From the NCBI GenBank assembly GCA_011319805.1, contig SJRY01000183.1, positions 62,001 to 126,000 on the forward strand: 64,000 bases of DNA. The letters run 5' to 3'. Of the stretch, positions 1 through 31,803 are shown one piece after another. The stretch's first letter is position 1, and each line of letters begins with the position of its first letter. Under the pieces are notes generated by a model. It was not told the DNA's origin and searched no databases. It saw only the letters and a list, made by a program, of their open reading frames with translations. This DNA is from Macrocybe gigantea (lineage: Eukaryota > Basidiomycota > Agaricomycetes > Agaricales > Callistosporiaceae). Made by a program: the position numbers and the translations under genes.

Positions 1-10
1 TATAAAATTA

Positions 11-361
11 TTGGAGCCTTTACTAAGATATTTAGATATTCCTGTAGATTTATTTTTAGATGGGGAAGTGTCTTATTTAGTATTGTTATGTTTATATTAT
101 TTTATAATGTCTACCTTTGTTTTATTAAATGTTTTAAATATTTGTATATATTTGTTATCTATCTATATTGTAAGTAATGAAAAATTTTTAAATAAAATAC
201 CAGGTAATTATGTGTATGTACATCGTATATTGAATTATTATAAAAATATTAGAATTACTTTTATTGTCATTGAAAGTCTTATGTTATTATTTTGTTTAAT
301 TATTATGATTGGTCTAAGTTATAGTATGTTATTTTTCTTTTTAAGTCTTAATAATAACTAA
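11..361 (+). CDS. Family 4 membrane-hairpin protein (hypothetical, 116 aa)
   Basis: Function unknown. The protein is almost entirely hydrophobic: a first membrane stretch at about residues 20-55, a charged loop at about 56-80 (NEKFLNKIPGNYV...), and a second membrane helix at about 85-112. The segment VLNICIYLLSIYIV followed by P...YYKNIRITFIVIES aligns by eye with the proteins at 1918-2265 and 8102-8574, so these three form one family. The start is only 10 bases from the window edge, so an upstream extension cannot be excluded. It is followed by a broken ORF at 446 on the same strand. I infer integrated mitochondrial plasmid cargo from the nearby dpoB remnants. Confidence 0.6.
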   Translation: MEPLLRYLDIPVDLFLDGEVSYLVLLCLYYFIMSTFVLLNVLNICIYLLSIYIVSNEKFLNKIPGNYVYVHRILNYYKNIRITFIVIESLMLLFCLIIMIGLSYSMLFFFLSLNNN

Positions 362-445
362 ATATAAATTAAAGTCATATAACTATAAATAAAATATTAC
401 ACAGTATAAACATTATATATTTTCTTAAATAAAAATATTAATACA

Positions 446-802
446 ATGAGAAATCTATTTATAACTTATGTGGTTAATCTTTATATTTTACATGTTTTAT
501 TTTGTTCTTTAAATTCTGTTTTTAATAGTCAAGTTTTATTTATATTATTATTTAGTAGTATTATTGTAGGTGTCTTGGTTTATATTTTTGCTTCTAGTCA
601 CACTTTATTGGGTGTTATAACAAAGGAAGGTAAAGTATTTTTATAATGTTCTTTTGCTAAAGCTGGTAGTGACCTATACGATAGCAGTAAAGGTAAGCTT
701 AGAGATAAATATGAAGAATATAAATCGGATAATAAAAATAAACCTGATAACGGGTCTAATAGTAATAGTACAAATAATAATGGTTCTGAAAACCAAAACT
801 AA
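446..802 (+). pseudogene. Small membrane protein with hydrophilic tail, broken by one TAA
   Basis: An ATG frame encodes two hydrophobic segments (about residues 1-25 and 29-50) and stops at TAA 644-646. The same frame then continues for about 50 codons without another stop: AKAGSDLYDSSKGKLRDKY, then a tail rich in Asn, Ser, Gly and Lys, ending at TAA 800-802. The continued, protein-like reading after the stop suggests one nonsense mutation in a 118-codon gene. Function unknown. It could alternatively be a genuine 66 aa protein. Confidence 0.45.
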
Positions 803-1917
803 ATATTAATTAATAACTATTATAAAAATCTGTTTCGAGTTTTTTTTTTTGTTTTTTCTTACATATGTGCCTGGTGGCCTTATTTTAATCGTGCGTCTCT
901 ATCCGGCATAAATTTTTTATTAATATCTGTAAATATCTATTATTGAGGTGTTGTTATACCTATTCTTTAATAGTATTTAAATAAATAAAAATTATTTACT
1001 TAGTTTTTTTCCTATTATAAATTATTATACTAGGTTTTTTGTTATAATTTTAAATTAAAAATAAATTGAGTATATAAAGGGTATAAGTATATTATATTAA
1101 ATATAATAATAAAAAATTAAAAATACTCTGTAGTTTAAAGGTAGAATTAAAAAAACTATCTCAGTAGTGGTACTGATAGAGGATAAAAAAGTAATTTAAT
1201 ACTTTTTTAATTTAAATTTTCATTTTATAATGTTAATTATTTAATTATTAGTGGTTTAGTCTCAATCCAAATACCTTCGTTATTATAAATTTTTTCTCGT
1301 TTTGTATAAGAACTATAATTTAATATAACGTCTTTTTTTCTATTAAAACAGATGCTTTTTCATAGTTAGTTTTAGTATTAAATTTAGTTTTTTAAAATTC
1401 ATATTTTTATTATACATTGGTTTGAAGTATTCAACAGATATTGAGTTATTTTTTTTTTTATATATTTAGTTTTAATGATTGTTTACCCCTTAATTAAAAA
1501 ACAAAATTAAACAAATAATTTTTATTATAACCAAAAAAAATCTTCCTTTATGTCATATTCTAATTTAAATTGTTCTCTATTATCTACTAACCATTTAAGA
1601 TTAAAATATTTTTTTTTATCTAAAACAATGATATTCTGTATCCGAATAATAAAAATAATATAAATTATTTCAAAATTCTCTACTTTAATAGATAAAGGAT
1701 GTTCTTTTTGGTCAGTCAGTTTGTAACTCGTTCTGGGAGGAAGAATAATATTGTTCGTTATGTTTTAATAGTATTATTTTTTAACTCTTCGAATATAACT
1801 CATCCTTATCTACTTTAATAAATCTTTAGTAGACGGATTTTTTATTGTTCGAATTAATGTTTAGTCTAATTGGAATTAAACTTATTAGTCTAATCTTATA
1901 TTTTATAACTTAAAATT
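803..1917. other. Non-genic spacer with a hairpin and decayed coding traces
   Basis: No intact ORF. Positions 1156-1179 form a strong hairpin (CTAT..CAGTA / TACTG..ATAG). On the minus strand, short protein-like pieces can be read between about 1,900 and 1,250, for example RTSYKLTDQKEHPLSIKV near 1,750-1,690 and YNNEGIWIETKP near 1,290-1,250. Many stops and frame changes separate them. The second piece resembles segments of plasmid dpoB N-terminal regions, but I cannot identify it securely. Confidence 0.35.
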
Positions 1918-3741: not shown

Positions 3742-3754
3742 TTTAATCTTATTA

Positions 3755-5480: not shown

Positions 5481-5652
5481 TCTTTCATTTTTTAATATTA
5501 ATAAATGAAATTATTTTATCTCAATTAGGATTAGTGTTATGAATATATTTATTTTATTAATTTTAATTTTTAATAATTGTTATCATTATAGTTTGAAATA
5601 AAATTTACTACTTAAAATTAAATTTGACTTAATTTAATTATTATTTAATTTG

Positions 5653-5734
5653 TGGAATAAAGGTGATTCGAACACCTAAGGGCTTTAACCCGAACAATTA
5701 GCAATTGTCTTATCTTACCAATGAATATTATTCC
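5653..5734 (-). tRNA. trnS(gcu): tRNA-Ser(GCU)
   Basis: On the reverse strand the acceptor stem GGAATAA/TTATTCC is perfect. The anticodon loop TTGCTAA gives GCU and the T-arm is AGGTG-TTCGAAT-CACCT. There is a long variable arm, as expected for Ser. This is the only minus-strand tRNA in the window and it lies between two dpoB remnants. Confidence 0.93.
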
Positions 5735-8101: not shown

Positions 8102-8574
8102 TTAAAAAACATGAATTTCTATTAAAGAAAAAATGACTATACATAACAGAAAAAACAAAAAACAGGTGATTCCTTCTAAGATAACAAAAAATAAAGAACT
8201 TCTTTCATAATATTTAATTATCTGTTTAAATTTAGGAAATTTAATTTCTACATCATATTTACTAATTAAATATAAAGAAGTTAAATAACCAACAACATTA
8301 ATAAAATTTAATAAACAAATCAAAGAAAGTAAAAAAATACCATAGCAAATTTACTATGATGATCACTATCATCAGGGATATTTAAATTTAAATTTAAATT
8401 ATGTAATATAGCTGTAAACAGAAAAGAATGTTGTGTATTATTAAAATTATTAAGTTTAATATTAATTGCAGGTTTAATTAAAATAAACTTATTTTTACCT
8501 TTTTGTAATAAACTATTTAGAAATAGTTTTAAATTAATTATATATTTTTTAAACATTTTAAATTTATTACTCAT
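8102..8574 (-). CDS. Family 4 membrane-hairpin protein, frame broken at a T7 run
   Basis: Two overlapping reverse frames (8574-8320 and 8323-8102) look like one gene. The first encodes a basic amphipathic N-terminus and then AMVFF. The second encodes a membrane segment with NFINVVGYLTSLYLIS, a charged loop with KFPKFKQIIKYYERSS, and a final membrane helix. The break lies at a run of 7 T in the gene (7 A at 8331-8337 on the + strand). One more T would join the frames into a protein like those at 11-361 and 1918-2265. It lies 17 bases after the family 1 gene at 8592-9602 on the same strand, an operon-like arrangement. Function unknown. Confidence 0.55.
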
Positions 8575-8591: not shown

Positions 8592-9602
8592 TTAATTTAT
8601 TGGAATAGGGTGGGTAGCAATAAAATGTATTCCGTATGATAACATATACATAAAATATAATATACTTCCTCCTAAGAAAAAAAGTTCTATCCCTATTATC
8701 TTTTTATTAAAAGCAATATACCATTTAATATATTTATTAGTAAATAAATTCATTAATTTATCACTATATATTAATATTAAAACATTAAACATAAATGCTA
8801 CTAATAAAAATATAATTAATACTGATAATATAAATAAGATAATACTAAGACCATAGATTTGTTCTGCTAATAATATATTAGAATAGTCAACAGACACAGG
8901 TGATAATACGGGATTTAAGATCTCAATGATATTATTCATTAATTTCTCATAAAAATCATCTACACCATCACCCATAAAATTTTTAGTCACTTCATTAATT
9001 TTATTCATTGTTTCACTATCATTATCAACATGAATTTCTACTGTATTTTTATCTGTCCAAATTTGTTTCCAATTTGTTATATGATTTTTAACATATGAAG
9101 GATCATTTATAGCATTATTTATTGCCTTAGATGCAGTATCTGATAAAACAGTAGTAGCTATCACAAATGCTTTTTGACTAGGAGAACCCCCAGCTCTTAA
9201 TAAAGATAATCTAAAAGCACCTGTACCATAAATAAATAATTGTCTAATAGAATTAGACCATCCTGCATCAGTATGAGTTATTTGCACATTAGTATTATGT
9301 GAACTAGAATTATCAGAAGTAGAAACCATATTACTTAAAATCTCATAAATTGAATATGTCTCTGTATATATCCTATTAAAGTAATCCAATAAAGATGTTA
9401 TTATTATCAAAAGATCATAAAATAAGAAAGCAAATACTAAACCAATAAGAATATAATCAAAATAAAAGATAAAAAGATTAAATTTTTTTTTAGTACCAAA
9501 AACATAAGTTGTTTTTGTCATAATTTGATGAGTTAAGCCATTTACTGGTATTAGGAGTAATAATAAAGAACCTAATATTATTAATAAAAGTAAAATTATC
9601 AT
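8592..9602 (-). CDS. Family 1 membrane protein (hypothetical, 336 aa)
   Basis: Function unknown. The N-terminus is a signal-like hydrophobic stretch ending in LIPVNG (residues about 1-23), and a membrane helix follows at about 44-72. The central soluble part contains a Gly/Ala-rich block RLSLLRAGGSPSQKAF (about 130-150). The C-terminus is the hairpin shared by the accessory proteins: membrane helix about 248-280, loop SDKLMNLFTNKYIKWY, membrane helix about 300-325. It is intact with no in-frame TGA. It resembles the ORFs at 27,938 and 62,888. A family 4 gene follows 17 bases downstream. The intact frame among decayed neighbours suggests it is still under selection or arrived recently. Confidence 0.65.
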   Translation of the reverse strand: MIILLLLIILGSLLLLLIPVNGLTHQIMTKTTYVFGTKKKFNLFIFYFDYILIGLVFAFLFYDLLIIITSLLDYFNRIYTETYSIYEILSNMVSTSDNSSSHNTNVQITHTDAGWSNSIRQLFIYGTGAFRLSLLRAGGSPSQKAFVIATTVLSDTASKAINNAINDPSYVKNHITNWKQIWTDKNTVEIHVDNDSETMNKINEVTKNFMGDGVDDFYEKLMNNIIEILNPVLSPVSVDYSNILLAEQIYGLSIILFILSVLIIFLLVAFMFNVLILIYSDKLMNLFTNKYIKWYIAFNKKIIGIELFFLGGSILYFMYMLSYGIHFIATHPIPIN

Positions 9603-10080
9603 TATGTTTTAAATTTAATTTTTATTTAAAAAATTATAAAAATTAGTTATTATTTCTTATAAAAATTATTAGTTTATAAAATTTAATTATACCTAGATGA
9701 TATTTAGTTAAGTGGAGAGTTATTAATTTATTAAATTATTTATTTATAAATTAAATTAAAGTTGTATATAATCAGTAGAGTTATATAATATATAATATAT
9801 AACATATAATATATAAATCTTTTTTTACTTTCTTTTAATATATATTTATAAAATTATAATATGAACACAAAATGATAGTAAATCTTTAAAGAACTAAGAA
9901 GGAACCATCAGAATATTAAATATAAATATTATGAAATATCAAAATAATTAGTATCTGTTTTAATTAAATAATTATTTATTAATAATATAATAATTAATAT
10001 TTTTATATTCATATAAATATTATAATTTAAATGCTTTATATTTGTCTAATTATTTAGAAAAATAAATAAAAATTATTACT

Positions 10081-12079
10081 ATGTATATTGAAACATTAGA
10101 GAATTATAAGGATAATAATGAAAATCGCAATGTAATACCTTCTCTTATTTAGGGGTATGAGGATTATCATTTCAATAGTTATTATTTAACTAATTTTAAC
10201 TTTGTTGAATATATGTTAATTCTATCTATTAGAGAATTATGTAAACCTAAATATCATAATTATCCTATTTATTTTCATAATTTTGCTAATTTTGAGGCCA
10301 TCTTTTTATTAAAAGGATTAATTAAATTAAGACACATTAAACCTATTTTATATAAAGGTAAAATTATATCTATTACTTTACTATTTACATTTGGTAAAAA
10401 TAATAAACAATATAAACTTCACTTTAAAGATAGTTATCAAATTTCATTATCTAGTTTAAATAAATTAAGTAAATCATTTATTTTAGAGGAACAAGAGCGA
10501 AAATCATTTTTTCCTCATAAATTTGTTACTCAAAAGAATTTAAATTATATTGGAAATGTTCCTGAAATTGAATATTTTAATAATATAAATTTAGAAAAAT
10601 ATAATAATTATGTAACACAATTTCATAATAATTGAAATTTAAAAAAATGAAGCTATAAAATATTGTGAATTAGATTGTAGAAGTTTATATTTAATTTTAG
10701 ATAAATTTAATGAGAGCATTGGGGAGAAATTTAATATTGATTTTAATAAATATTCTACATTACCTGGTTTAATTTTTAATATTTATTTATCTAATTATTA
10801 TAAAAATGAATATAAAATCTCTATGATTTCTTCTAATAGTAAAATATTTAATGATATAAACCAAAGTTATACAGGAGGAAGTGTAGATATGTTTATTCCT
10901 ACTAATCAAAGTAATGAATTTATCTATGGATATGATGTCAATTCATTATATCCTAGTGTAATGTTGAATAATAAATTTTCTTCTGGTAATCCTATTTATT
11001 TTTAAGGAGATATAAGAAAGTATAATGATAAAGCATTTGGTTTCTTTTGGTGTCGTGTAATTACTCCAAAATATATTCATCATCCTATTATTCAATGTCC
11101 TGTTAAAACTAATGAGGGTATAAGAACTGTTAGTGGATTAAATTATACAACAGGATTTTAAAGGAGGTTATTTAGTGAATAAAGATTATATGAAAATATG
11201 GATATAAATTTGATATTAAAGGGGGTTATTTCTTTGAAAATGCAAGATCTGATATTTTTTATGATTTTATTAAAGATTTATTTCAATTAAGACTAAATTA
11301 CTCTAAAAGTCATTCTATGAATTATATTGCTAAAATATTAATGAATAATTTATATGGAAGATTTGGAATGGAGGATAATTTTATACAATGTACGATCAGA
11401 ATTGAACAAGAATTTATCGAATTTTCAACTTACATAAAACATAAAACAAGAGAGTATTAATATAGATAAATTAGATCCAAATTATTTAGTGACAACAAAA
11501 CCTAAAATATTATCTATCATCGATTGTCATTATGAGGATAGTCCTAATATTAATATTGTTATAGCTAGTGCTATTACAGCTTAGGCTAGAATAAATATGA
11601 GTAAATATTTAAATAATTAAAATTTAAAACTTTATTATACAGAGACAGATTCTATTTATACTAATTTAAATCATGAAAAAAGGAATCAATTATTTAATAA
11701 AATCATTAATTTTTCTGAGTCAGGTAAATTAAAATTAGAAACAATCTCTACTAAAGCTATCTTTAATTCTCCTAAAGTGTATTATCTTAAACCGTGAGAT
11801 AACCAAGAAATAATGAAAGTGAAAGGATTAAATAAATTAAATGATATTAATGTTAAAGATTTTGATCAACTTTTATTTAAAGATGTTAAAATTGAAAAAA
11901 ATCAATCTAAATGGTTTAAATCTATAAATAAAGGTGACATTGAAATAAAAGAACAATTATATACTTTACAACAAACTGAAAATAAAATAACATTAATCTA
12001 TGATAAAAATAATAAACTAATAGAAACAAAAGATTATCAAATAGTAAATAATGATTATTACGAATTAATACCCTTATAA
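10081..12079 (+). pseudogene. dpoB: dpoB remnant 3, nearly full-length but multiply broken
   Basis: All main blocks of a plasmid B-family DNA polymerase can be followed in order. They are YIETLE (exo I, about 10,084), YPIYFHNFANFEAIF (exo II, about 10,260), KYCELDC (exo III, about 10,657), motif A YGYDVNSLYPSVM (about 10,930), motif B MNNLYGRFGM (about 11,338), motif C YYTETDSIY (about 11,633), then a C-terminus to TAA 12079. Breaks include a TAG near 10,150, an A-run frameshift near 10,645, a TAA in YF*GDIRKY near 11,002 and a frameshift near 11,200. TGA at 10633-10635 and 11795-11797 sits where Trp is expected. It differs in sequence from remnants 1 and 2. Confidence 0.85.
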
Positions 12080-13305: not shown

Positions 13306-13618
13306 TAGAATTAATATTAAAAAGTATTCCCTATAATAGAAAATTTAAAATTTTAAATTAATTATTAAAATAAGAATAAAAGAGTTTATATAAAAATCGA
13401 TAAATTAAAAAATACAAAATTATATAATATAATTATTAGATTACTAATAATAATTTCCCCACTAATAAAATAAAATTTAATATCCTAAGGTATAATTAAA
13501 AATAAAATAAAATTAAAAATGATAATAGATTACAAACTAAAAATCAATAAAAAAATAACTAATTTTTATAATTTTTTAAATAAAAATTAAATTAAAATAA
13601 AAACAAAATAAAAAAATA

Positions 13619-15126
13619 ATGATCACTTTACTTTTATTAATTCCAATATTATTTTTTTTCTTATTCTATCCAATCCCAGTAAATGGCTGAAGTCCTCACA
13701 TACAAATGAAGAAAATAATATTAATAATTTTTCTAATAAATTTCTTTCTTTATATTTGGTCTCAATTTGATTTCAATACCACCCAATATCAATTTATCTC
13801 AGAATTTAATCAAATAAATTTATGTCATTTAAATTTATTGAGAATAAAATCATTTCATACTAGTTGTGTAAAAAATTCTAATTCTAGAATTGTGACTTTA
13901 CGAGATATATTAGATAGACCTTCAGAAAATGAACGATTATCTAATTTACAAAGAATAAAATATGAACAAGATGTCTCCTTAGAGGAAGTTGATAATTTAG
14001 AAATAAATATGAGTACTTATGAAGAAAGTTTTCCTTGGTTATTAGATGAAAATGGAAAAATAATAGATTATAATAAATCTATAACATTATTTAATGCTAT
14101 TAAATTAATTTCTCATTTCTTAGAAAAAAGATTTGGGGGAGATAAAAATGAAATATCTGAAGTTAAATTAGCTGAAATAATTAAAATTTTTACAGAAAAT
14201 AAAGATGTCACTGTAATGGATTTATTTACACATGTTTCTAATCTTTATAAAAACGATAAAGATAGTGTTAAAATACTTTCTGAGGTTTTAAATATCGAAA
14301 ACAATGAATCTTCATTAAATACTAATAATACAAATATTTCTGAATCATCACAACCTTTAGGAAGATTTGGAGAAATAACCTTAAATGATCTAGCAGTATA
14401 TATTAGAGATAAAAATTGGGAATTAAAGTTAGACAGATTACAATTAACTGTTAATCCTTTACCTTTAACTATGAATTTTATTAGTTATAATTTAATTATA
14501 AAAAGTTATATGAAATATGTACATAATAGACCTTATTCCCCTAATTTAGATACTGTTAAGAGAAATTTAGAAATAAGATATAGAAATCGACAATTAGGTC
14601 TTTTCGTTTTTATAGGTGCTCCTTTCATTTTATATTGTATAAATAAATCAGCTATTTCTATGAAGGAAAGGGGTTCTATATCTATAGGAAAATCTACTGA
14701 AAGCGACACTGGTAATAATAGTTTAATTTATAGTAGTTTATTTTTATTTTTAAGTAATATAACTAAAAAAATACCTGATTGGTTAAAATTCATTTTTAAA
14801 TTATTATTATTAACCTCAATAATTTTTAAATTATTAGGGTTTAGCAGTATTCTCGTTATTTTTGATAGTAGTAAATACCTTAAATTATATATATATATAT
14901 ATGTTCATTAATAATTTTTTATTTATTTTTTAATATATTTATGTTATATATATTTTATAAAAAAATTAAAATACCAGAAATTTTACCTGAATTTTTAATA
15001 AATTCGTTAACAGATTTTGAAATTATGTGTGAAACTAAAGAAAGTTTTAAACATTTTAAAAATCTTTTTTATATAGAAATTTTAGTACATTTACTAGTAA
15101 TAATTTTAGCAAGTATAATATTATAA
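13619..15126 (+). CDS. Family 2 membrane protein ORF430 with TGA-Trp and a C-terminal frameshift
   Basis: The frame opens at ATG 13619 and crosses TGA at 13688-13690 (IPVNG-W-SPHIQM, Trp by comparison with the family 1 N-terminus LIPVNG). It stays open to TAA 14911, giving 430 aa. The N-terminus has two hydrophobic stretches and then R75-IKSFHTS, like a mitochondrial presequence cleavage site. The middle contains FGEITLNDLAVYI and YRNRQLGLFVFIG, matching the gene at 20,733-22,226. The expected C-terminal hairpin is found in another frame at 14941-15126 (KIPEILPEFLINS...). The break coincides with a TA microsatellite near 14,885-14,903. Function unknown. It may make a truncated protein or be newly broken. 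Confidence 0.55.
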
Positions 15127-18330: not shown

Positions 18331-18692
18331 AATAATAATATTATCATTGTTAAAATTTTCACATTAAAATATAAAAATGTGTAATATATATTTGTTATAT
18401 GTCATTAAATTAAATTTACCTCAATATAACAAATTTTTAAAAAAACACAAAAAGTAAAATATTTTAAATTTCTATTAAAGATTTCTGTTACAATTTCCTT
18501 ATATACAATATTAAATTTACTCGATATAACTCTAGTAACAATATGTATTTTATATAGAGAGTTTGGTTGTTTTTATGTATTGAGGTATAAAATAATAGGG
18601 TGTAACAATTTTTAACTGACAACATAATAATCAAAATAAAAATTCAAATTAAACAAATGAAGTACATTATAATATAATAAGAATATAATTTT

Positions 18693-20078
18693 TTATAAAA
18701 TTCGTATAACTCTTTTTTTAGTTATACGTAATTTTTCATTATAAAATTTATGAACAAATTGTGGATAATCTTTAGAGATAGTGACTTTATCTGTTATTTT
18801 TAAATTCATCAGTATATATAAAGATAATCCTAAATATATTATAGCTACTAATGTATAAAATATATAAAAATATAACATCTCAGTTTTATATTTTAATAGA
18901 TAAAAAAATGACTAATTTTAAATAATAAAACACACCAAATATATTTAACAATATTATAAACATAAATATTAATAACCCTCTAATTCATTTATTCAATTTA
19001 TTAAAATAAGAAGAAAACATACCAAAGATAAAGCTTTTCTCTGTTGTGTTTTCACCTAAAGAGGTATTGACATCCTGTGAAGAATTAATAATTATTTTAA
19101 ATAAACTAGGTTTTATTGAATTTAAATTCATTACCATTAAAGGTGCCGTAACTCCTAAAAAAAAATATGTGTGTTAAATATTTATTTCTTAAACATCTGG
19201 ATCTTTATAAGCTAGTATAATGTTTAGGGGGAGTTATAGTATTACTGATTTTCCAATAAATTATAATAATTAAACCCTAACTAACAGCCATACTTAGTAA
19301 TTGAGGCTCTATATTTATGTGATGTAATGGTCATTTAGAAAAATAAAAATTTTTCAATCCATAATATATTTCACGTAAAGTAATATCACCTATCTCTTTT
19401 GAATTTTTAATCTCGTTAGCTACTTCTGTTACCAATTCAGGTTGAGTTTTATTTGAACTAGATTGTAGTACTCTTACATTGTTTAAAATTTTTGTTAAAG
19501 GTATTTGTTTTAAACAATCAACCATCACACCCTCTTTTTCACATTGTTCTAGACCACCATTAAATATTGTGGTAGCTTTAAATATTGCAGTTTTATATTC
19601 AGAAGAGTTATTTTATTATTAACTATTATTAGATAAATTATTAATAGTTTATTCATTAATAAAACTTACAGTGTTATAAAATGTTTTATCTATATTTGAA
19701 TTACTAAATGCTTTTTTTATTGTGTAAAAAGTATCTAAAACATCCTGTTCGGTTAGGTTGAATTTACCTATATTTTCAGCTCTTTAGCTCATTCTATTTA
19801 GAGAGTATTCTTATTATTTAGCTTAATTATTTATAGTGTTATTATAAGTTTGAACTATTTTTTAAATTCTTTAATTCTTCTACACCTTTTAACATTTCTG
19901 ATATTTGTTCATCTGATAATCTTAGATCCTCAATATTATTATTTTAATTTGTATTAGGATGATTACTTTGAGTTAAATCATTATTATTAGGTAAATTTAA
20001 TATTCTGGACGTAGCTATACCTCTATACATATTTATATTTTTAATATAATTATTACAATTACGATCAAATTTTATCAT
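18693..20078 (-). pseudogene. Family 2 gene, decayed tandem copy of ORF497
   Basis: This segment follows ORF497 (20,733-22,226) in the same orientation and can be aligned along its whole length. It has the N-terminus FDRNCNNYIKNINMYRGIA, GDITLREIYYGLKNFYFSK followed by TGA (the same Trp position), HIFFLGVTAPLMVM, SFIFGMFSSYFNKLNK and the C-terminal hairpin IIYLGLSLYILMNLKI...KDYPQFVHKFY. Several TAA/TAG stops and frameshifts break it. Longest open pieces are 19331-19528 and 18693-18878. Positions 19981-20074 are identical base for base to 22120-22213, although the rest has diverged. Confidence 0.75.
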
Positions 20079-20732: not shown

Positions 20733-22226
20733 TTAAGTTATAAAACTAATAGTAATTAAAAAAATTAAAAAAATTAAACCCATAGTATATAATATTAAAA
20801 AATGAGAATATAAATTTTTATAAGCGTCATACAACTCATTTTTTCTAGATATATGTAATTTATCATGATAAAAATTATGAATAAATTGTGGATAATGTTT
20901 AGGTATTTTTAGATCATCTTTAATTTTAAAATTCATAATTAGATATAAGGATAATCCTAAATATATTATCATTAATATTGACAGAAAGAGAGATAAACAT
21001 AAGAACTCAATTTGATATTTGATTAAATAACCAAGAATTATTTTAAAATAATAAAATACACCCAATTTTTTTAATATAATGATACCTAGGATATAGAATA
21101 ACCCTCTAATTCATTTATTTAATTTATTATAATAAGAGGTAAACATACCAAAAATAAAACTATGTTTTAATATGTTTTTGCTTTCAGATGTATTAACCTC
21201 CTGTGAAGGGTTAATTACTCTTTTAAATAAATTAGGTTTATAAAGGTGTATTCCTACCACCATAACAGGAGCTATCATTCCTAAAAAAAAAGCATGAACT
21301 AAATTTCTATTTCTTATATATCTAGAAAGTTCTATTTTAGAGAAATCTTTGGGGTGAGAAAAAGATTGATTGATTTTCCAATAAGTTCTTGCAATTAAAC
21401 CATAACTAAATACCATACTAAATAGTTGAGGATCTACATTTATGTTAGGTAGTGGTCATTTAGAAAAATCTAAATTATTAATTGCTTTACCTATTTCACG
21501 TAAAGTAATATCACCTATATTTTTTGAAGTTGTTAAACTTATATCATTAACAACATCATTTAACAATTCTGTGTTATTGTTATTAGAATTAGATTGTGAT
21601 GCTATTATTTTAGTAAAAATTTGTTTGATAGATATTTGTTTTAAGCAATCCATCAACATACCATTATTTTCAAATTTCCTTAAGGATTCTAGAAATAAAG
21701 ATAAACCTTCAATTATAATAGAAAAATGTTCATTTAATGTAGAAGGCTCTTTACTCATGATACCAGATTGTAAATATTTTTTATTATATAATTCTACAAA
21801 ATCAACAAAAGATTTATTTTTACTCTCTTGAAAGGGTGTATTATTAAACAAGTTTGTGACCTCACTAAAGTTATCTGAAATATCTGAAGATTCTATTTTA
21901 CAAATTATAGCTTCGGCTCGTTCTCGCATCCGATCTATAGCTTCACTAGATAAATTTTCTGAACTCTTAATAGTTGTTTCAGAGTGATTATTTTGTGCAG
22001 ATAACATTTTTAATTCTTCAATTCCTGAATGAAAGTGTTGAATTTGTTCTTCTGATAATTGGAGATTATCCATATTAGTGTTATTATTTGCATTACAATT
22101 AGTATTTTTAAGGAATGATTTATTATTAGGTAAATTTAATATTCTGGACGTAGCTATACCTCTATACATATTTATATTTTTAATATAATTATTACAATTA
22201 CGATCAAATTTTAAAATTTGTTTCAT
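20733..22226 (-). CDS. Family 2 membrane protein ORF497, two in-frame TGA codons
   Basis: Three abutting reverse open stretches share one frame and are separated only by TGA at 21456-21458 and 21111-21113. Read with TGA as Trp, they form one 497-residue protein with no TAA or TAG. The N-terminus is basic and presequence-like (NINMYRGIATSRIL). Residues about 45-250 are soluble and helical, including IGDITLREIGKAI. A membrane-associated part contains SRYIRNRNLVHAFFLG (about 300-330). The C-terminus is the hairpin: helix with IIYLGLSLYLIMNFKI, loop KHYPQFIHNFYHDKLHIS, final helix. Homologues are ORF430 (13,619) and a decayed copy at 18,693. Function unknown. If TGA were stop, only the first 256 residues would be made. 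Confidence 0.65.
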
Positions 22227-23329
22227 TATTATTTTTTTGATTAAGGTTAAATTTAAGATTAGAATGTTTACTGTTAAGAATAACTAACTATAAAACTATT
22301 AAAATATTAGTTATTAACATAAAATTTTTTTATAAAAAGAAAAGAAAATAATAGTTTAATAATAAGGTAAGCACTGACTATACTCATTAGTATAGTTACA
22401 AATAATAAATTTGTACTGCTAAATGAATAGGTATATCATATTTAAATGTTAAGTTACCTACTTTAAAAAAAAAGTCCAATCACTAAAATATTACTATTTT
22501 AGTTACTTTTATAACATTTATAATAATCTATTTTAAAATAAAATTTGTCTAGTAAAAAGTGCAACTTTGGATGATAATATATTTAAAATATAAATGATTT
22601 TTTTTATTTATTAATGTTAATAAAAATTAACATGTATTATTATTTTTTAGCTATAATTATTATATTTTTAAAACTTTTGAAATAATCCACTATAGATACC
22701 TAGAATAGGTTATACTATTGAGGATTAGTATGGGAATTTTATATTAATATTTACCTTAATATTAATTAATTTAATTATTTTTAATAAATTTATTGTTTTT
22801 ATATTAGGTAGTTCATTTTACATGAAATCTACTAATATATTTTATATATTGACAAATATTCCCTCAAATAGATTTTCATCATTGATTTACGATGAATTCA
22901 ATCATTCAATATATTGTTTTGAGATTAGGAAAGGATGAACCATCTTTACCATTAACTAGTCATCATTTAAAGTGGTTATATTTAAAAAAAAGAGGATGCA
23001 GGTATTAGGGTTTAAGGTTTAATATAAATATGAGGGATTGTTCATTATTTAAGGGAGATGACTTAGTTTTATACCCTTTTAAATGATCATCAATTAGAGT
23101 CTAATGTCCTATAATGACATACCTCTTTCCATGAATCCTCCTTATATAGTCAATATTAAATTAATACTTAGTTCAGTTATGTCTCTTATGTTATCCATTG
23201 TTTAAGGGGTAAGTTTTTAATAAAAGTATCCACTCTCCATGGTGATAGGGTGTTGTGTTCCTCATAGTTGAGTAATTAATTAATAGGGAGGAGATTTAAC
23301 ACAGAACTAACATATTTAAATAAATACTA
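22227..23329. other. Spacer, possible short unrecognised fragments
   Basis: No secure gene. A 38-codon ATG frame starts at 22892 (MNSIIQYIVLRLGKDEPSLP...) and looks more protein-like than its surroundings, but I recognise no family. The stretch 22,860-23,280 is visibly less A/T-monotonous than its flanks. Confidence 0.3.
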
Positions 23330-23530
23330 CTGAAACACATTACTACAATTATAAAGGTATTTAATAAATAATAATAGTTATAATATTTTCTTCTCAACTC
23401 TATTAATTTTCCTATTCTAGGAAATTCGTTTTCTATATTAAAATATTTGATTAATAACTCTGATAAGAATACTAATAATAATGAAAATACATTTGCTAAA
23501 ATAAATCCAAAAGCTTAAATATTCATACTA
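23330..23530 (-). pseudogene. Family 3 C-terminal fragment
   Basis: The reverse strand reads ANVFSLLLVFLSELLI, then YFNIENEFPRIGKLIELRR and KYYNYYYLLNTFIIVVMC. This closely matches the C-terminus of the intact family 3 gene at 31,117-31,803 (YFNIENKYPRIGKIIEMRR). No N-terminal part can be followed upstream. Confidence 0.6.
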
Positions 23531-24478
23531 GCTAACACCTGTTCTAAAGGTAATGATTCTAAAAATGTGTTTATTTTTTTAAATTCATAATAAAGTAGAA
23601 GGTTTATATAATAATTAAATAATAATATTCAGATTTTAATTTATATATAAAAATAAATTATCTTTTTTATAAATACTAATTTCAACTCCTGTTTATTATT
23701 TTTAAATTGTATAATTAATTTTAAAATTATTAACAAAGAAAACTAATTTTAGGCTAAATATTAAAAAAGTAACAAATTTTAAATAAAGAAATAAATTTAT
23801 TACTGGGGGTCAAGAAACTAGAGTAATTAATAATTATATACCTCCTTATTTGTAGATTAGTTTTAGATTAATTAAATATAAGTTATTAATTTAGTTTATT
23901 GAGTATAAAAATATTAAACATATAATAAATAAGGTCATTTTATCTGTTTTAATGTAATAAAAATTATGAGTACTATCTAATACATTTCTAATAATTTATC
24001 TAATTTTAAGTATATATTTTAATTAAATAAATTAAAATCATTATAAAATATGAATTTATTTCCTATTATTAACTAAGTAAAAATGATTAATATTATAAAT
24101 TATAAATATAAGGTAAAAATAAAATTTAGAGACTTCTTATAATTAATCTTATATTTCAGATAAATTAAATTGTCCTCTTGATATTATAAGTATAAATTAA
24201 TTTAATTTTTTAGTTTAATAAAATTTCATTAAATTATAGAAAATATAAAATAAAAATTTTCTTTCTTTATAATAAATATACAATTATATCCAATATTATC
24301 ATGATTAAGTTTGCAATATATAGAATTAATCTTCTTAAGAGATATATAAGATATAATATTAATTACATAGGATTAATTATATTTAATATATTAATTAAAC
24401 AAATAAAACAAATAAAATATAGAAACTAATTATATTATAAAAGTAGTTAATTTACAAATAAAATAATTCAATAATAAA
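23531..24478. other. Non-genic AT-rich spacer
   Basis: No gene can be supported. The last 50 bases before the tRNA (from about 24,428) belong to a block repeated before the second and third trnI copies. Confidence 0.4.
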
Positions 24479-24549
24479 AAGTCTATAATTTAACGGTAGA
24501 ATAATTTCTTGATGAGGAATCTGTAGAAGTTCAAATCTTCTTGGACTTA
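24479..24549 (+). tRNA. trnI(gau): tRNA-Ile(GAU), copy 1
   Basis: Acceptor AAGTCTA/TGGACTT, anticodon stem ATTTC/GGAAT around loop TTGATGA (GAU), T-arm AGAAG-TTCAAAT-CTTCT, discriminator A. Nearly identical copies lie at 27,059 and 32,320. Confidence 0.93.
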
Positions 24550-24864
24550 ATATAAACTATATAAATATTAGATTATATTATATAATATAAAAATATAATT
24601 AATATAAAAAAAAGTAAATATATTGTCATAATGTTAAATTTTTTATTTAGTGACATATTTTAAATAATTAAATGTGTGTATATTTATACTTTAATTTTTT
24701 TTAATTTTATATCTACAAATGAAATGATAAATAAGTTAAAAAAATAAAATTTAAAATTCAAATTTAATTAATACAAACTCTTGTATAATTAGGTAATAAT
24801 ATAATTATATTAAAAATTGTAATAAATAAAAATTAAAATAAAAAATAAAAAATTTATTTATAAA

Positions 24865-25158
24865 TTAACTAACATTTTTTTATAATATAAAAAATAATAA
24901 TAACCTTTAACATTAAGATACCTAATTTAATTCATTCTTTTTATCTTCTTTAATAAAACAAAGGAACTAAAAATAATAATAAAATTTTAAAACTTGAATA
25001 TCTTTCTTTACTGTAATAAACTAAATTAAAACATTTAAAACAAGTAATACAGTTATTTCATAAAAATTTATATATAAAATTAAAAAATAAAAAATATATA
25101 TAAAAACTCTAATGAAAATTTAAACAAATAAAAACAAATAAACAATAAACAAATAAAA
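24865..25158 (+). promoter_or_regulatory. nad1 5' leader, duplicated before ORF380
   Basis: This stretch up to the nad1 ATG shares long blocks with 27,675-27,905: taactaacattttttt, aataataataacctttaaca, atctttctttactgtaataa and aatacagttatttcataaaa. The shared part stops shortly before each start codon. Conservation in otherwise fast-evolving spacer suggests a functional 5' untranslated or promoter region. No specific promoter motif is proven. Confidence 0.5.
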
Positions 25159-26175: not shown

Positions 26176-27058
26176 TTTTTATATTTAATAGTTATTTATA
26201 CAGTTAATTTTGAATTGTTAAGGAATATTTTTTAATTTGATTTTTTAATTATTTAACCCCAAATTTGTAATTATTTAATAAATTAATTTTTTAACTTTAA
26301 TAAAAAAAATAATTTTAAATTAAAACTAAATTATTATTATTATTTATATTCTAATTAAAATAAATAAATAAATATAAACTTAAAACTAAAAAGAATTATA
26401 ATTGTAAGATGTTTCTTTATTACAATAATTGTAAATATTATTATATTTTATTAATCTAAATTTATATTTTTATATTTATTAAAATTTTATTAATTATTAT
26501 ATGTTTTGTTAGTTTAGTTTAATTTTTCATTTTTAAAGAATAATTAAAAAAAAGACTTAATTTTTGTTATTAAAGATTTAAATTTTAAACTTAATATATA
26601 CCTATAATATAAATTTGTTATAAAAAATAATTTATAGATGTTAATATTTTATAAGGGTTATAATAATTAGTAGGAATATTTTTATATAATAATGATTAAT
26701 AGATTTGAAAAATAATATGCATTAAATTATTATTAATTTAATCTAATTATAATTAATAATTATATATTAATCTGTACCTATTATTGAAACTATATCTTAT
26801 AAAATATATTATTATTTTATATATAACTCTTAATTATATTATAATATTTTCATTATAATTTTGTTTATATTTATATACATATTTTATTATATCTTCTATT
26901 ATAAGCATATATTTTTAATTAAAATTGCTTTTTATATGCTTATATAAAACTTTTTAATAAATTTAAAAAATAATTTATACTATAAAAATAGTTAAGTTAC
27001 AAAATATAATTATATTATAAAAGTAGTTAATTTACAAATAAAATAATTCAATAATAAA
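26176..27058. other. Spacer between nad1 and trnI copy 2
   Basis: No gene seen. It ends with about 50 bases (from about 27,008) nearly identical to those before the first trnI copy. Confidence 0.4.
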
Positions 27059-27129
27059 AAGTCTATAATTTAACGGTAGAATAATTTCTTGATGAGGAAT
27101 CTGTAGAAGTTCAAATCTTCTTGGACTTA
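27059..27129 (+). tRNA. trnI(gau): tRNA-Ile(GAU), copy 2
   Basis: The tRNA sequence is identical to the copy at 24,479, as are about 50 bases upstream. Anticodon loop TTGATGA. It is part of the duplicated nad1 upstream region that now precedes ORF380. Confidence 0.93.
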
Positions 27130-27674
27130 ATATAAACTATATTAGATTATATTATATTATATTAGATTATATTATATAATATAAAAATATAATTAATATT
27201 AAAAAAAATAATAATATATTGTCATAATGTTAAATTTAGTTAATTATAGGAATAACTTAAATACTTACAATCTTAAACTTTATATATTTTATATTTTAAA
27301 TATCAAACTCTTAAGTTTATCTAAAAAAATAATTTATATTAAAATTTTAAGAATAATTATATTGTTTATAATTAAAAAATTAAAAATAAATAATAAATAA
27401 ACAAATCCTTAATTATAAATAAAATACTATTATGCTTAAGACCAATAGTTTAAGCTCTTCCAACAAATAATTAAAAACTAAAATAATAATTAGTTTAAAT
27501 TTCATCCAATTATTTTTATAAAAACTCTTTTTAGCCTTAATTAAAATAATTTAAAAGTAAATATAAATATTAACTAAAATATATAAATATTTCTTAATTT
27601 AAAAAATAATTAAATACTCATAATAATTTTATAATTAAATTAAAAATAAAGAATTTAATTTAATATTTAAAAAA

Positions 27675-27937
27675 TAACTAACATTTTTTTAATAATATAA
27701 AAATAATAATAACCTTTAACACTAAGATACCCATTTTTAATTATTTTTATCTTCTTTACATTCAAAGATAGGAACTAAAAATAATAATGAATTTTAAAAC
27801 TTAAATATCTTTCTTTACTGTAATAAACTAAATTTTAAACATTTAAAACAAGCAATACAGTTATTTCATAAAAATTTATATATATATATATAAAAACTCT
27901 AATGAAAATAAATAAAATTAAAATATAAAAAAAGCAA
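27675..27937 (+). promoter_or_regulatory. Duplicated nad1-type leader before ORF380
   Basis: It repeats, with small changes, the blocks of the nad1 leader: taactaacattttttt, aataataataacctttaaca, atctttctttactgtaataa, atacagttatttcataaaa, aactctaatgaaaat. It ends about 30 bases before the ORF380 ATG. Inference: the accessory ORF borrows the expression signals of nad1. Confidence 0.5.
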
Positions 27938-29080
27938 ATGACTATAATACAAAATCTTATAATACATTTTTTCATTGGTTTTATTTCTTATTTTTTAATA
28001 ATGAATTTGATCTTAAAAGGTTATTTTGGAAATTCTTTCAAATTAAAAATATCCTCTCAATTAAAAACAAATAAATTTGTTTTGGTAAAAAACTTAATTA
28101 TTATATATTCAATAATTAATATAATGTATTTTCTTATGATAAATACTCCCATTTATTTAGATAGTAGTACAGTAGTAAATGTTACTTTAGAAAATGCTAA
28201 AGTGACTGTTTCAGGTGAATACATAAACAAAGTTTTTGAAAATTCAGGATCTGCAGCAGCTTTTATTGCTGGACTTAGAATTTCCGCAGCCATTTTAACT
28301 AAAGTAAATATGACACCAATGAGTAAAATGGCTTTTATAAATGGTTCTGGGACTGGAACTATGCTATCTTTTAAAATGACAAATGATAATTATAGTTTTA
28401 TTAAAGGAACATTCTCAGCTCTAAAAAATGCATCAAATCTTTCAGTAGAAGTTAAAAATGTTGAAATTATAACTTCTAATAATAATTTCTCTTCTTCTCA
28501 AAATACAAATTTAATTCCAAGAATGGAATTAAAAAGTAATGAGACATTTTTCTCTAAATATCAAGAGATGTTTTCAGAAAAATTTACAGTAACCGAATCT
28601 CCAACTAAAGACTCCAGAGTTATAGAATCTTTAGAAAATTTTACAAATAAAAAACTAAATGAAATCTTTTTACATGGAGATACTAAGGTAACAGATAATT
28701 TAATTGATATTAAACAAAACTTTATAAATTCTCCTTTAGAACAAATGGATTTAGTCACTAATACTTTTAGAGATCAAATGATAAATATATTAACTATGGA
28801 TTATAAACTGCATTTTATAATGATTTATTTTGTATGTATGTTAATTTTTTTATTCACTATAAAATTATTAGTAGATAAAAATGTATCATTTGAGTTTATA
28901 AAATCTTATCCTTTAGGTAAATACATTCATGTTATTATTAGTAAAATAATCACTTTATATAGTAAAAGTATTATATTTTGGATATACTACTTATTAATAT
29001 TTTTATTAATTTTTTTATGCGTTTCTACCTTCTCATTATATGGCTGTTTAATTGCATTACACTCTAACATAAAATTCTAA
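27938..29080 (+). CDS. Family 1 membrane protein ORF380 (hypothetical)
   Basis: Function unknown, 380 aa, intact, no TGA. Two membrane helices occur near the N-terminus (about residues 9-30 and 48-70). A soluble region follows with the family 1 block GLRISAAILTKVNMTPMSK (about 110-130) and a Gly-rich turn NGSGTGTMLSF. A polar helical region spans about 190-280. The C-terminal hairpin is a membrane helix about 290-310, a loop with VSFEFIKSYPLGKYIHV, and a membrane stretch about 338-370. It resembles the ORFs at 8,592 and 62,888. It sits behind a copy of trnI and the nad1 leader. A family 3 pair lies downstream. Confidence 0.65.
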   Translation: MTIIQNLIIHFFIGFISYFLIMNLILKGYFGNSFKLKISSQLKTNKFVLVKNLIIIYSIINIMYFLMINTPIYLDSSTVVNVTLENAKVTVSGEYINKVFENSGSAAAFIAGLRISAAILTKVNMTPMSKMAFINGSGTGTMLSFKMTNDNYSFIKGTFSALKNASNLSVEVKNVEIITSNNNFSSSQNTNLIPRMELKSNETFFSKYQEMFSEKFTVTESPTKDSRVIESLENFTNKKLNEIFLHGDTKVTDNLIDIKQNFINSPLEQMDLVTNTFRDQMINILTMDYKLHFIMIYFVCMLIFLFTIKLLVDKNVSFEFIKSYPLGKYIHVIISKIITLYSKSIIFWIYYLLIFLLIFLCVSTFSLYGCLIALHSNIKF

Positions 29081-29443
29081 ATTCAATAAAACTAAGAATA
29101 TTAATTAAAAAAATAAAATTTTAAAAATATAAAATATTTTAATTTAACCCTATTAATTATTATAATAAAATGAATATAACCCTCTGATAACTTAACCCTA
29201 AATTACAAGTTAAAATCTGAATGATCCTATTTTAATATTAAATAAAATTTAAAATGAACAAATTTTTACTTTTTCTCTATCAAATTCTCAACTTCCATCA
29301 ACTGTGCTAAAACAATAACACCCTAAGATATTAAATTTATTAGAATTAATAAAAATCAAGAATTTTAACCCTATAATACTACGTTCTCAAAATAATTATT
29401 TTCGAAAAGATATTATATAAATTAAACAAACAAAAAAAAATAA

Positions 29444-30118
29444 ATGAAAAATATAATCTCAAGAATTTTTAAAAAGCTCTCACAACATTAGGTTTTACAA
29501 TGTCTGGATATAATTTTGTAAATGGTATTATGTGACAAAAAGAAAATAAAAATTTAATTTAAAAACTTGAAGAGGAAGTGAGAAAAATTATTGTTTCTAA
29601 AATTGAGAGTATAGAAGCTAAAATGGAGATAATTTTTATTAAGAAAAAGATTTTAGTTTATAAATCACTAAAATTGTCAATAATATAAATAATAACTTCT
29701 AACTTCTTAATTCCTAATCTAATATTAAATACTTCCTTGAGACTGATGACTATAAAAAATTAAAAAGTGTTATGAACAAATGACTAGATAAAAATAATGA
29801 AAATAATTTTATCGATTATAATATTATAGAAGAAGTTTCTAATTATCTTAAGTCTTTAACAAACTTATTAAAAGTTAGCTATAATGAATATTTAAGCTTC
29901 ATTATTTATATTTTTAAATATTATTTCATTATTAACAATATTCTTCTCATATTTTTTTATTAAAATATTTCAATATAGATAATAAATATCCATAAATAAA
30001 ATAATTTAAAGATTTAATAAGAAAATTATCTAAATACTATTATTTATTAAATTGTATAATTATATATATTATGACAATAATAAGTATATGTTTAAATTTA
30101 TTAGTTTTTATATATTAA
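29444..30118 (+). pseudogene. Family 3 gene, decayed copy upstream of ORF228
   Basis: Forward fragments read LTTLGFTMSGYNFVNGIM-W(TGA)-QKENKN, then KLEEEVRKIIVSKIESIEA (coiled-coil-like). After several breaks the family C-terminus follows: IFSLLTIFFSYFFIKYFN, IDNKYP, DLIRKLSKYYYLLNCIIIY. The order matches the intact gene at 31,117-31,803, about 1 kb downstream. Stops and frameshifts make a full product impossible. Confidence 0.6.
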
Positions 30119-31116
30119 TATAAAATATATATCCCTATACAAGAATATATCAGATATTGTATTTAAACATTAAAAACAAAAATGGAAAAAATAAATTATT
30201 AGTTATTAAAATTTAGATCCATTATAAAACTAAACCTTTACTTATACCCTAATTTTAAATTATAATTACAAATTCATATATCCTATTTTTAATTTATAAT
30301 TATATAGGAAATATAAAGTAAGAGAGGTAAATTTATAAAAATAGTGATATGTAATGATGGTTTTATGATCTAATTATTTGTATTATATACTAGGTTTATT
30401 TTTGTATAATTATTTAAAAGAGGCTAAAATAAAATGTTGACAATCTCTCAAAAATATCAACTTATTTCAAAAATTAAATCTATTTTTTATCTATTATAAT
30501 ATTCTAATAAGATATTGAATTATATTTATATCTATAAAAGCTAAGGTATCTATAATAAGATTATTTAAATCAGAGGACACAATTATAATCAACATCTATT
30601 GATGTTTTAATGTTTATAGTTATTAATATCTATTGATGTTTAAACTTTATATAATATCAAAAGATACAATTATTTACCCTCTTAATAATAAAATAAAAAT
30701 TATCAATAAAGATATACAAAACTTTTTTTTGTTTTTTTTTTAATAAAACTCAGGTATATATAGATAGTTTTTATGGTTCTGATTATTATTAGGGGTTATT
30801 ATATTTTAATATATATGATTATTATTAGGTGATATATATAATATTTTGAATATTTCATAGATATTATATTAATTATTTGATAATATTAAAATGATTACAC
30901 TAGTGATATATTATGGGGTGATACAATTATAATTTAAATTTAAAAGGACCAAACTTTTGTTTTTTTTTTTTTTCATCCCTATGATAAAAATTCTATTGAT
31001 TTAATGTTATACTGTTATTACTTAGTAAGCATTAAAAAATATAGAGATCACTCCTATGATCAATAATATTAACAATTGAAATACTCGAACAATTTAACAA
31101 CCGTCTTACATATAAT
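30119..31116. other. Spacer between family 3 copies
   Basis: No gene supported. A short duplicated phrase (atctattgatgtttaa) occurs near 30,595-30,645. Just before ORF228, 31,085-31,112 (cgaacaatttaacaaccgtctta) resembles the antisense anticodon-arm sequence of trnS(gcu) at 5,690-5,716. Confidence 0.35.
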
Positions 31117-31803
31117 ATGAAAATGAAAAAAGATAAAATAATACAAAACTTTTTTAAAACTCTAACCTTTCTGTCTTTTTCAATGTCAACAAATAATTTT
31201 ATAAATAAAAAAGATATTGAAAAATATGAACAAAAAATTGAAGAATTACAAACTCAATGTAAAACTTTACAAGATGTTATTATCAAAAAAGATGATAACT
31301 TAAAATCTATTTTAGACTCTCAAACTAATATGACAGATTTTATGGTTAGTTTCACAGATCGGATATTAAAAACTTTTCAAACTAAAGAAGATCCATTGAC
31401 TGATAGTCAAATTTTGGAATTATTAACCGATGAAAACTTAAAAAAGGGTATGGAAGAATTAATAAAAAGTTTAGATAACTCAGATACAACTAATTTCTTA
31501 AATTTAGATATATTCGATACAATAAATTCATTGTTAAACTCTTTATCTTTAGATCAACTTCTAGCTATTATAAACATATCTGGAAGTAGTTTTATTTTAC
31601 TTAACATGTTTTCATTATTAACTGTTTTCTTTTCAGATTTTCTAATAAGATATTTTAATATAGAAAATAAATATCCTAGAATAGGAAAAATAATAGAAAT
31701 GAGAAGAAGATTCTATAGATATTATTATTTAGTAAATAGTTTAATTATTATTATCATGTGTTTAATTACTATCTATGTTAATCTTCTAATGTTGTTTAAA
31801 TAA
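31117..31803 (+). CDS. Family 3 coiled-coil membrane protein ORF228 (hypothetical)
   Basis: Function unknown, 228 aa, intact. A basic N-terminus precedes a short hydrophobic stretch. Residues about 30-70 form a likely coiled coil (KYEQKIEELQTQCKTLQDV). The middle is helical and acidic. The C-terminal hairpin has a membrane helix at about 147-175 (ISGSSFILLNMFSLLTVFF), a basic loop YFNIENKYPRIGKIIEMRR, and a membrane helix at about 203-226. At least three decayed relatives occur in the window, at 29,444, 16,972 (minus) and 23,330 (minus). The coiled coil suggests oligomerisation, but this is inference only. Confidence 0.6.
   Translation: MKMKKDKIIQNFFKTLTFLSFSMSTNNFINKKDIEKYEQKIEELQTQCKTLQDVIIKKDDNLKSILDSQTNMTDFMVSFTDRILKTFQTKEDPLTDSQILELLTDENLKKGMEELIKSLDNSDTTNFLNLDIFDTINSLLNSLSLDQLLAIINISGSSFILLNMFSLLTVFFSDFLIRYFNIENKYPRIGKIIEMRRRFYRYYYLVNSLIIIIMCLITIYVNLLMLFK

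What the first reader, a model, noticed from the sequence alone, without database searches (positions are those of the whole stretch)
1..31803. A multi-family set of plasmid-linked membrane proteins sharing a C-terminal TM-loop-TM hairpin
At least five protein families, intact and decayed, recur: family 1 (8,592; 27,938; 62,888), family 2 (13,619; 20,733; 18,693), family 3 (31,117; 29,444; 16,972; 23,330), family 4 (11; 1,918; 8,102) and the SDKTI type (12,416; 17,875). Nearly all end with a membrane helix, a basic loop often containing a Pro (NKIPG, NKYPRIG, KHYPQF, KSYPLGK), and a second helix. I recognise no known function. A shared tail on otherwise different soluble parts suggests a common membrane dock, as in a multi-protein complex made by the element.
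Basis: partly seen in the sequence, partly recalled or inferred. Interest (0 to 1): 0.78.

Follow-up and report, generated by a model that had tools for sequence, protein, structure and literature searches.

The report
Mitochondrial membrane genes with borrowed leaders
A mushroom-type mitochondrial genome carries many accessory genes for membrane proteins, some of which share an inherited membrane-anchor tail and some of which sit behind copied start regions of respiratory genes, a construction partly reported before in other fungi and still without a known function.

Summary
The window is 64 kb of a ~129.6 kb fungal mitogenome; its only named protein relatives are in Amanita and Sphaerobolus. 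The membrane ORFs are real. Families 3 and 4 share a homologous C-terminal TM–basic loop (..KYPK..)–TM hairpin; 69 database proteins match its profile, on different N-terminal parts. One tail for all families is not supported: 'family 1' splits into four groups sharing only layout (one borderline match), and 13,619 of family 2 lacks loop and second helix.

The stronger finding lies upstream. Six of 19 filtered repeat pairs join the start region of a core gene (nad1, cox2, nad4 twice, cox3 twice) to the start of one of these ORFs; two are in-frame fusions to the nad4 N-terminus. Three other members lie inside cox1 introns. Plasmid-type DNA polymerase survives only as relics.

Best reading: plasmid-associated accessory membrane proteins using expression signals of respiratory genes, anchored with the basic loop in the matrix. 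Expression, topology and function are inferred. ORFs with 5' pieces of core genes upstream are in print for Heterobasidion; eight paper searches listed nothing on a shared hairpin.

The parts
1..361 (+). Family 4a short hairpin protein (starts at -10, before the window; 123 aa)
   Evidence: T4a HMM E 6e-44, but the model includes the near-identical P0003
1918..2265 (+). Family 4a short hairpin protein (115 aa)
   Evidence: T4a HMM E 1.2e-21; outside relative P0056
2464..3741 (+). ORF of 425 aa without the tail; outside relative P0010 carries a 4b hairpin behind this domain
8102..8350 (-). Decayed family 4b hairpin
   Evidence: T4b HMM E 1.4e-37
8592..9602 (-). Hairpin ORF 'F1b' (336 aa), begins with a nad4 N-terminal copy
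9531..9794 (-). Copy of nad4 5' leader plus first codons (82%)
10153..11463 (+). Relic of plasmid-type family B DNA polymerase, split over frames
   Evidence: PF03175; the next ORF 11,621-12,079 had no such match
13508..13836 (+). Copy of nad4 leader plus ~75 codons (84%), fused in frame to the next ORF
13619..14911 (+). Family 2 chimera (430 aa): nad4 N-terminus plus family 2 body; lacks loop and second helix of the 20,733 tail
16975..17226 (-). Decayed family 3 hairpin
   Evidence: T3 HMM E 2.8e-10 and 7.3e-6 on two frames
18646..19612 (-). Decayed family 2 copy
20733..22226 (-). Family 2 ORF (497 aa) with a C-terminal TM-loop-TM not shown to be homologous to families 3/4
23299..23514 (-). 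Decayed family 3 hairpin
   Evidence: T3 HMM E 1.4e-14
24427..25086 (+). tRNA-Ile and nad1 leader (source copies)
27007..27896 (+). Second tRNA-Ile and copied nad1 leader (90% and 85% in two pieces), ends 42 nt before the next ORF
27938..29080 (+). Hairpin ORF 'F1c' (380 aa), loop KSYPLGK; borderline similarity of its hairpin to families 3/4
29874..30073 (+). Decayed family 3 piece
   Evidence: 76-78% DNA identity to 23,359-23,536 and 31,610-31,758
31117..31803 (+). Family 3 ORF (228 aa) ending in a hairpin with NKYPRIG
   Evidence: T3 HMM E 1.1e-23
39370..39693 (+). cox2 leader; copied (78%) to -7,826..-7,529, where the copy ends at the ATG of an intact family 3 ORF
62888..63754 (+). Hairpin ORF 'F1a' (288 aa) inside a cox1 intron; relative of the gene at -46,709, which has outside relatives incl. 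Amanita muscaria

Best explanation
These are accessory ('non-conserved') mitochondrial genes, plasmid-associated, that encode inner-membrane proteins. Shown: families 3 and 4 carry one homologous C-terminal hairpin module that occurs on different N-terminal parts; six ORFs of several families begin where a duplicated 5' leader (in two cases with the first codons) of nad1, nad4, cox2 or cox3 ends; three others lie in cox1 introns, two of them behind LAGLIDADG sequence. Inferred: the copied leaders, or co-transcription with cox1, provide transcription and translation signals of respiratory genes; the hairpin is inserted co-translationally with its basic loop in the matrix, so that the N-terminal domain faces the intermembrane space; the genes persist as hitchhikers with at most optional effects on the host. 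Their biochemical activity is unknown.
For: Leaders: 6 of 19 filtered repeat pairs join a core-gene start to a hairpin-ORF start; with 16 ORF starts placed at random 3,000 times the maximum was 3 (2 of 3,000); with the set rotated, 8 of 3,000 reached 4 or more and 2 reached 6 (small rotations keep the true fit; not separated). Breakpoints: the cox2/family 3 copy ends at ATGAG; the two cox3 copies end 10 nt before and 1 nt after the first base of the ORF's ATG; nad4 copies run into the ORF. Identical runs of 30-182 nt in 7 of 7 leader pairs, reached by 0 to 0.85% of column shuffles. Introns: 62,888, -59,278 and -46,709 lie between cox1 exons recognised by eye and in part by Pfam. Hairpin homology. 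Charges: basic loop in 14 of 14 accessory ORFs. Conservation: the -46,709 gene (73% identical to P0071) has 12 outside relatives of 338-350 aa. Precedent: PMC10234125.
Against: No transcript or protein data. Ten of the 16 ORF starts tested, including 1918, 2464, 20733 and 31117, have no copied leader within the cut-offs, which (-90 to +260 nt) were set after seeing the pairs; two of the 16 starts (-59,278, -46,697) are approximate. The longest identical runs also fit gene conversion. One leader-bearing ORF (-36,445) is itself broken. Outside relatives are predicted proteins, so only intact frames can be listed. The one pair usable for rates is only mildly constrained (pN/pS 0.74, dN/dS 0.67, one copy a pseudogene). 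An acidic stretch before the hairpin is also seen in 3 of 5 core genes. No shared RNA structure in four leaders.
Confidence: 0.5

Rival explanations
1. The leader copies are passive by-products of linear-plasmid integration and recombination in an unstable genome; their position before ORFs comes from how the plasmid ends joined, not from use of the signals.
For: The dpo relic 10,153-11,463 lies between divergent nad4 5' copies (9,531-9,794 minus; 13,508-13,836 plus), as in the Agrocybe aegerita nad4 inverted repeats on both sides of a plasmid integration site (Ferandon 2008: title seen in a reference list; remark in PMC6609731). A Termitomyces plasmid carries the first 48 codons of nad2 (PMC9925561). 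Long identical runs suggest conversion.
Against: Four different core genes are involved, each with its 5' region, and the copies stop at or near the next ORF's start. Whether dpo relics adjoin every copy was not tested.
Confidence: 0.3
2. The ORFs are unexpressed remains of dead plasmids, kept open by composition or recency.
For: Many decayed copies beside intact ones; the DNA polymerase matches are split or stopped; Physarum mtDNA has many membrane-type ORFs described as untranscribed (PMC10048350, passages); dN/dS 0.67.
Against: 40 random genomes gave 17 ORFs >=100 aa and no hairpin; 12 outside relatives of one member keep full length, though only intact frames can be listed; copied leaders at starts.
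Confidence: 0.18
3. One reading: components of one multi-protein membrane complex encoded by the element and docked by a common tail.
For: Common hairpin in families 3 and 4; same layout and loop charge elsewhere.
Against: No shared tail shown for families 1 and 2; copies differ in intactness; members are scattered over the genome and in cox1 introns; no interaction evidence.
Confidence: 0.08

Closest known systems
Heterobasidion ncORFs / uORFs with partial core genes upstream (PMC10234125: section 11, section 16 part 1 of 2, and passages; PMC4201751 and PMC10512249: passages)
   Same: Agaricomycete mitogenome; nearly all 20 accessory ORFs with transmembrane regions; 5' ends of nad2, cox3 and atp8 lie upstream of cox2 and intergenic ORFs; broken dpo nearby; the authors already suggest that the partial copies help expression
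Phlebia radiata ORF319 (PMC4019555, section 17 and passages)
   Same: Unknown ORF whose first 37 nt differ by 1 nt from nad6
   Different: Lies at the end of a 6 kb inverted duplication; a single case
Linear mitochondrial plasmids of fungi (PMC9925561, abstract and results section)
   Same: Plasmids pick up mtDNA pieces, including a nad2 5' end; polymerase remains in mtDNA
   Different: No free plasmid and no plasmid RNA polymerase found in this assembly
Physarum mF plasmid and mtDNA SURFs (PMC10048350, passages)
   Same: Several unknown ORFs with transmembrane features, linked to a linear plasmid
   Different: No sequence test done; SURFs described as untranscribed
Plant cytoplasmic-male-sterility chimeric ORFs (recalled; listing and abstract starts only)
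   Same: Works-like comparison: chimeric ORFs joining mitochondrial gene pieces to unknown membrane proteins
   Different: No sterility biology known here; no sequence relation tested

Membership tests
Agaricomycete accessory ORFs (ncORF/uORF) | Long ORF in mtDNA outside the core set, without a known family | tested here: met
   Pfam: none of ten tested reaches its cut-off, nor nine outside relatives; PHROGs: best E 0.0035, unknown function; ten core genes identified
Agaricomycete accessory ORFs (ncORF/uORF) | Transmembrane segments | tested here: met
   hydropathy only
Agaricomycete accessory ORFs (ncORF/uORF) | Sequence relation to published ncORFs | tested here: inconclusive
   Named relatives only in Amanita inopinata, A. 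muscaria and Sphaerobolus stellatus; Heterobasidion sequences not at hand
Linear mitochondrial plasmid | Intact family B DNA polymerase | tested here: not met
   Six PF03175 matches, all with stops (some only TGA, read as Trp) and split over frames or places
Linear mitochondrial plasmid | Plasmid-type RNA polymerase | tested here: not met
   PF00940 matches only on contig C291, split in pieces and taken to be the nuclear gene
Linear mitochondrial plasmid | Terminal inverted repeats | not tested
   Only nad4 5' copies in inverted orientation were noted
CMS-type chimeric ORF | In-frame or leader fusion to a core mitochondrial gene | tested here: met
   for six of 16 ORF starts
CMS-type chimeric ORF | Phenotype and nuclear restorer | not testable with these tools
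   no phenotype data
LAGLIDADG endonuclease (database name of relative P0008) | LAGLIDADG Pfam domain | tested here: not met
   P0008 scanned: no LAGLIDADG match at E <= 0.1

The most novel reading that the evidence does not exclude
A recombining family of selfish membrane proteins in mushroom mitochondria: one hairpin anchor is swapped between different outward-facing domains, and unrelated members independently acquire leaders of respiratory genes, so that nuclear factors specific for those leaders also make the parasite's proteins. It would be a fungal counterpart, by construction, of plant male-sterility genes, acting on mitochondrial inheritance or growth.
Probability: 0.15. Interest if true: 0.75.

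Novelty: new variant of a known kind. Interest (0 to 1): 0.45.

Why it matters
Large mushroom mitogenomes hold many membrane ORFs of unknown use, one of which (Heterobasidion nc-ORF5/uORF8) is a candidate in mitonuclear growth effects (PMC10512249, passages). A defined hairpin profile makes part of this class searchable as a family, and the leader copies give a testable rule for which members are expressed and by which host factors.

Tried and rejected
Not supported: one common tail for all families; family 1 as one family (with so few sequences per group a remote relation stays possible; the F1b model did hit the family 4a ORF at -25..358 with E 7.7e-4, but a reversed ORF scored 2.5e-4); AT composition as a full explanation. 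The SDKTI stretches were only located. No relatives in IMG/VR with four queries or GTDB genome contigs with two; no relatives of family 2 among 7,995 scored candidates, though P0028 matches its C-terminus weakly (3e-4). PDB by sequence: for family 3 mostly coiled coils and designed bundles, best E 0.0033; for F1a one chance match, E 0.67. Pfam on the 14 rows of the F1a alignment: best E 0.025, FUN14 in 2 rows at 0.12. AlphaFold models too weak for a fold claim: family 3 mean pLDDT 65.5 (blocks of the hairpin mostly 79-88), F1a 43.2. RNA folding of four leaders: z -0.11 to -1.73. The 25-nt block shared by the cox2 and -7,533 leaders occurs once in the window, at cox2 (the other copy lies outside). 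Rfam gave no group I match in cox1, only two group II matches there. Enrichment of hairpin ORFs in cox1 introns is not claimed: 3 of 14 lie in cox1, which by the ORF positions spans about a fifth of the genome.
Full report
Setting. The window is C183:62001-126000 of a 41 Mb, 333-contig assembly. The contig is 158,364 bp and its ends overlap by 28.8 kb at 99.8%, so the mitogenome is about 129.6 kb. Coordinates below are window coordinates; negative ones lie before the window. nad1, nad2, nad3, nad4, nad5, nad6, cox2, cox3, atp6 and VAR1/rps3 were identified by Pfam (nad2, nad4 and nad5 share one proton-pump family and were told apart by eye), cob and cox1 exons by Pfam in part and by eye. The only relatives with names are from Amanita inopinata, A. 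muscaria and Sphaerobolus stellatus.

The hairpin. A profile of families 3 and 4 matched 69 proteins at E <= 0.01; only the 7,996 best candidates were scored, and some of the 69 are fragments. One is named a LAGLIDADG endonuclease (P0008), yet has no such Pfam match. By length and sequence I sorted them into T3 (~245 aa), T4a (~113-123 aa, little more than a hairpin) and T4b (~130-150 aa). HMMs from 5, 19 and 19 of these hairpins, run on 1,045 stop-to-stop ORFs of this genome, cross-hit between the types: T4b hits T3-type -35,916 (1.2e-10), T4a-type -25 (1.5e-9), T3 -7,557 (3.9e-6), 1909 (6.8e-5), 31045 (1.1e-4); T4a hits -20,503 (2.2e-9) and 8105 (3.4e-6); T3 hits -20,503 (4.4e-6) and 8105 (5.2e-5). 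Best hits on reversed ORFs were 0.0097 (T3), 0.1 (T4a) and 0.019 (T4b). In a tree of 39 hairpins the fusion protein P0010 pairs with T4b P0011 (support 0.875), and P0028 falls in a clade with T4b (0.75).

Limits of the tail. In profile tests with 62 negatives (core-gene segments and reversed sequences; best 15.9 bits), 27938 reached 26.0 bits but 33% probability; the other five family-1 tails scored 11.9-16.0 and the two family-2-type tails 15.8 and 10.8; three family 3/4 sequences not in the profile scored 40-74. Family 1 divides into {62888, -46,709 and outside relatives}, {8592, -59,278}, 27938 and -39,751. The 62888 tail does match the -46,709 group (35.5 bits, 87%). Across groups the best scores were 25.9 and 28.3 bits (4% and 8.5%), with reversed controls of 25.8 and 26.1. 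All 14 accessory ORFs with a hydropathy hairpin have a loop of +3 to +6 and 12 have an acidic stretch before it; the five core genes meeting the same rule have loops of 0 to +2, three with an acidic stretch. The 13,619 hit of that rule is not at the position of the 20,733 hairpin.

Copied leaders. The genome against itself shows: nad1 leader to 27938 (300 bp, 85%) with a second tRNA-Ile; nad4 leader and N-terminus to 9602(-) (82%) and to 13619 (in-frame chimera; 57 residues at 70%); cox3 leader to -39,751 (84%) and to a broken family 3 gene at -36,445 (86% over 749 bp); cox2 leader to the intact family 3 gene at -7,533 (78%). More loosely, the nad4-nad6 spacer recurs before family 3 at -43,288 (85.5%): the copy ends 34 nt before the ATG, the source 321 nt before nad6. 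Only the first six meet the rule. Before that test, pairs below 140 bp, 76% identity or 8% G+C and near-duplicates were dropped, leaving 19. Fourteen core sequences (of cob and cox1 only first exons) searched for partial protein copies found only the nad4 one at 13,670-13,834 besides the known likeness of nad2, nad4 and nad5; the shorter nad4 copy at 9,531-9,794 was seen in DNA only.

Introns. 62888-63754 lies between exon stretches IISAHAFIMIFFMV and MPGLVGGFGN; -59,278..-58,310 between PVLAG and AITMLLTDR, its stop about 8 bp before the exon; -46,709..-45,654 between AFHD and TYYVV. The last two introns also hold LAGLIDADG sequence. Exon ends were judged by eye, and the start codons of these two ORFs are uncertain.

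Conservation. Of 17 outside relatives of family 1, all closest in sequence to the -46,709 gene, 12 of 338-350 aa were aligned with two members from this genome; five shorter ones were left out. The 12 are 70-92% identical to P0071 (its own row apart), the -46,709 gene 73%, 62888 33%; 27 columns are invariant. Only proteins are available, so dN/dS could not be computed. For family 2, the intact and decayed copies differ by 29, 18 and 32% at codon positions 1-3; dN/dS 0.67 over 297 codons, two of them stops in the decayed copy.

Element. DNA polymerase B matches are split or stopped: 10.2-11.5 kb (+), ~4.1-4.3 kb (-), -10.2 to -9.25 kb; RNA polymerase matches lie on another contig only. The relic at 10.2-11.5 kb sits between the two outward-facing nad4 copies.

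Literature. PMC10234125 states that 5' ends of partial core genes lie upstream of cox2 and intergenic ORFs in Heterobasidion, that nearly all 20 intergenic ORFs have transmembrane regions, and suggests that the copies may maintain expression (section 11, section 16 part 1, passages). [quoted passage not shown] PMC10512249 proposes nc-ORF5 as a partner in a mitonuclear interaction (passages). PMC13424474 notes dpo and rpo genes near nad1, nad3 and cox3 and unknown ORFs in Amanita (passages). PMC7804350 reports plasmid-derived and unknown genes in Coniophora (passages). Eight searches listed no paper whose title or shown abstract start speaks of a shared hairpin; they were not all aimed at it, and most subscription papers are not held.

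Verdict. The membrane ORFs are real and partly one recombining family, but ordinary in kind for this group of fungi. What raises interest is the repeated, start-precise acquisition of core-gene leaders by different families together with a defined hairpin module. Function remains untested.

Noticed in passing
window 24479-24549, 27059-27129, 32320-32390: Three tRNA-Ile (GAT) copies, two of them travelling with the nad1 leader and its copy, the third between a family 3 ORF and cob.
   Followed up: partly
window 50537-51541 and 51556-52317: Two consecutive ORFs; the second is VAR1/rps3 by Pfam, the first (334 aa) was not assigned and may be a 5' part of rps3.
   Followed up: no
window 5652-5734 (-): A minus-strand tRNA-Ser (GCT) called by ARAGORN, not listed by Rfam at gathering score.
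   Followed up: no
contig C183 ends (L007 to L010; L013-L015, L017): The 28.8 kb overlap of the contig ends is 99.8% rather than 100% identical: assembly error or two mtDNA forms.
   Followed up: no
L011:1181-2147: An N-terminal membrane ORF with a KKDDS repeat and, in a shifted frame, a 4b-like hairpin: possibly one gene with a repeat-length frameshift.
   Followed up: partly
P0008 (Sphaerobolus stellatus): A family 3 hairpin protein is named LAGLIDADG endonuclease in the database but has no such Pfam match, so the name looks wrong.
   Followed up: yes
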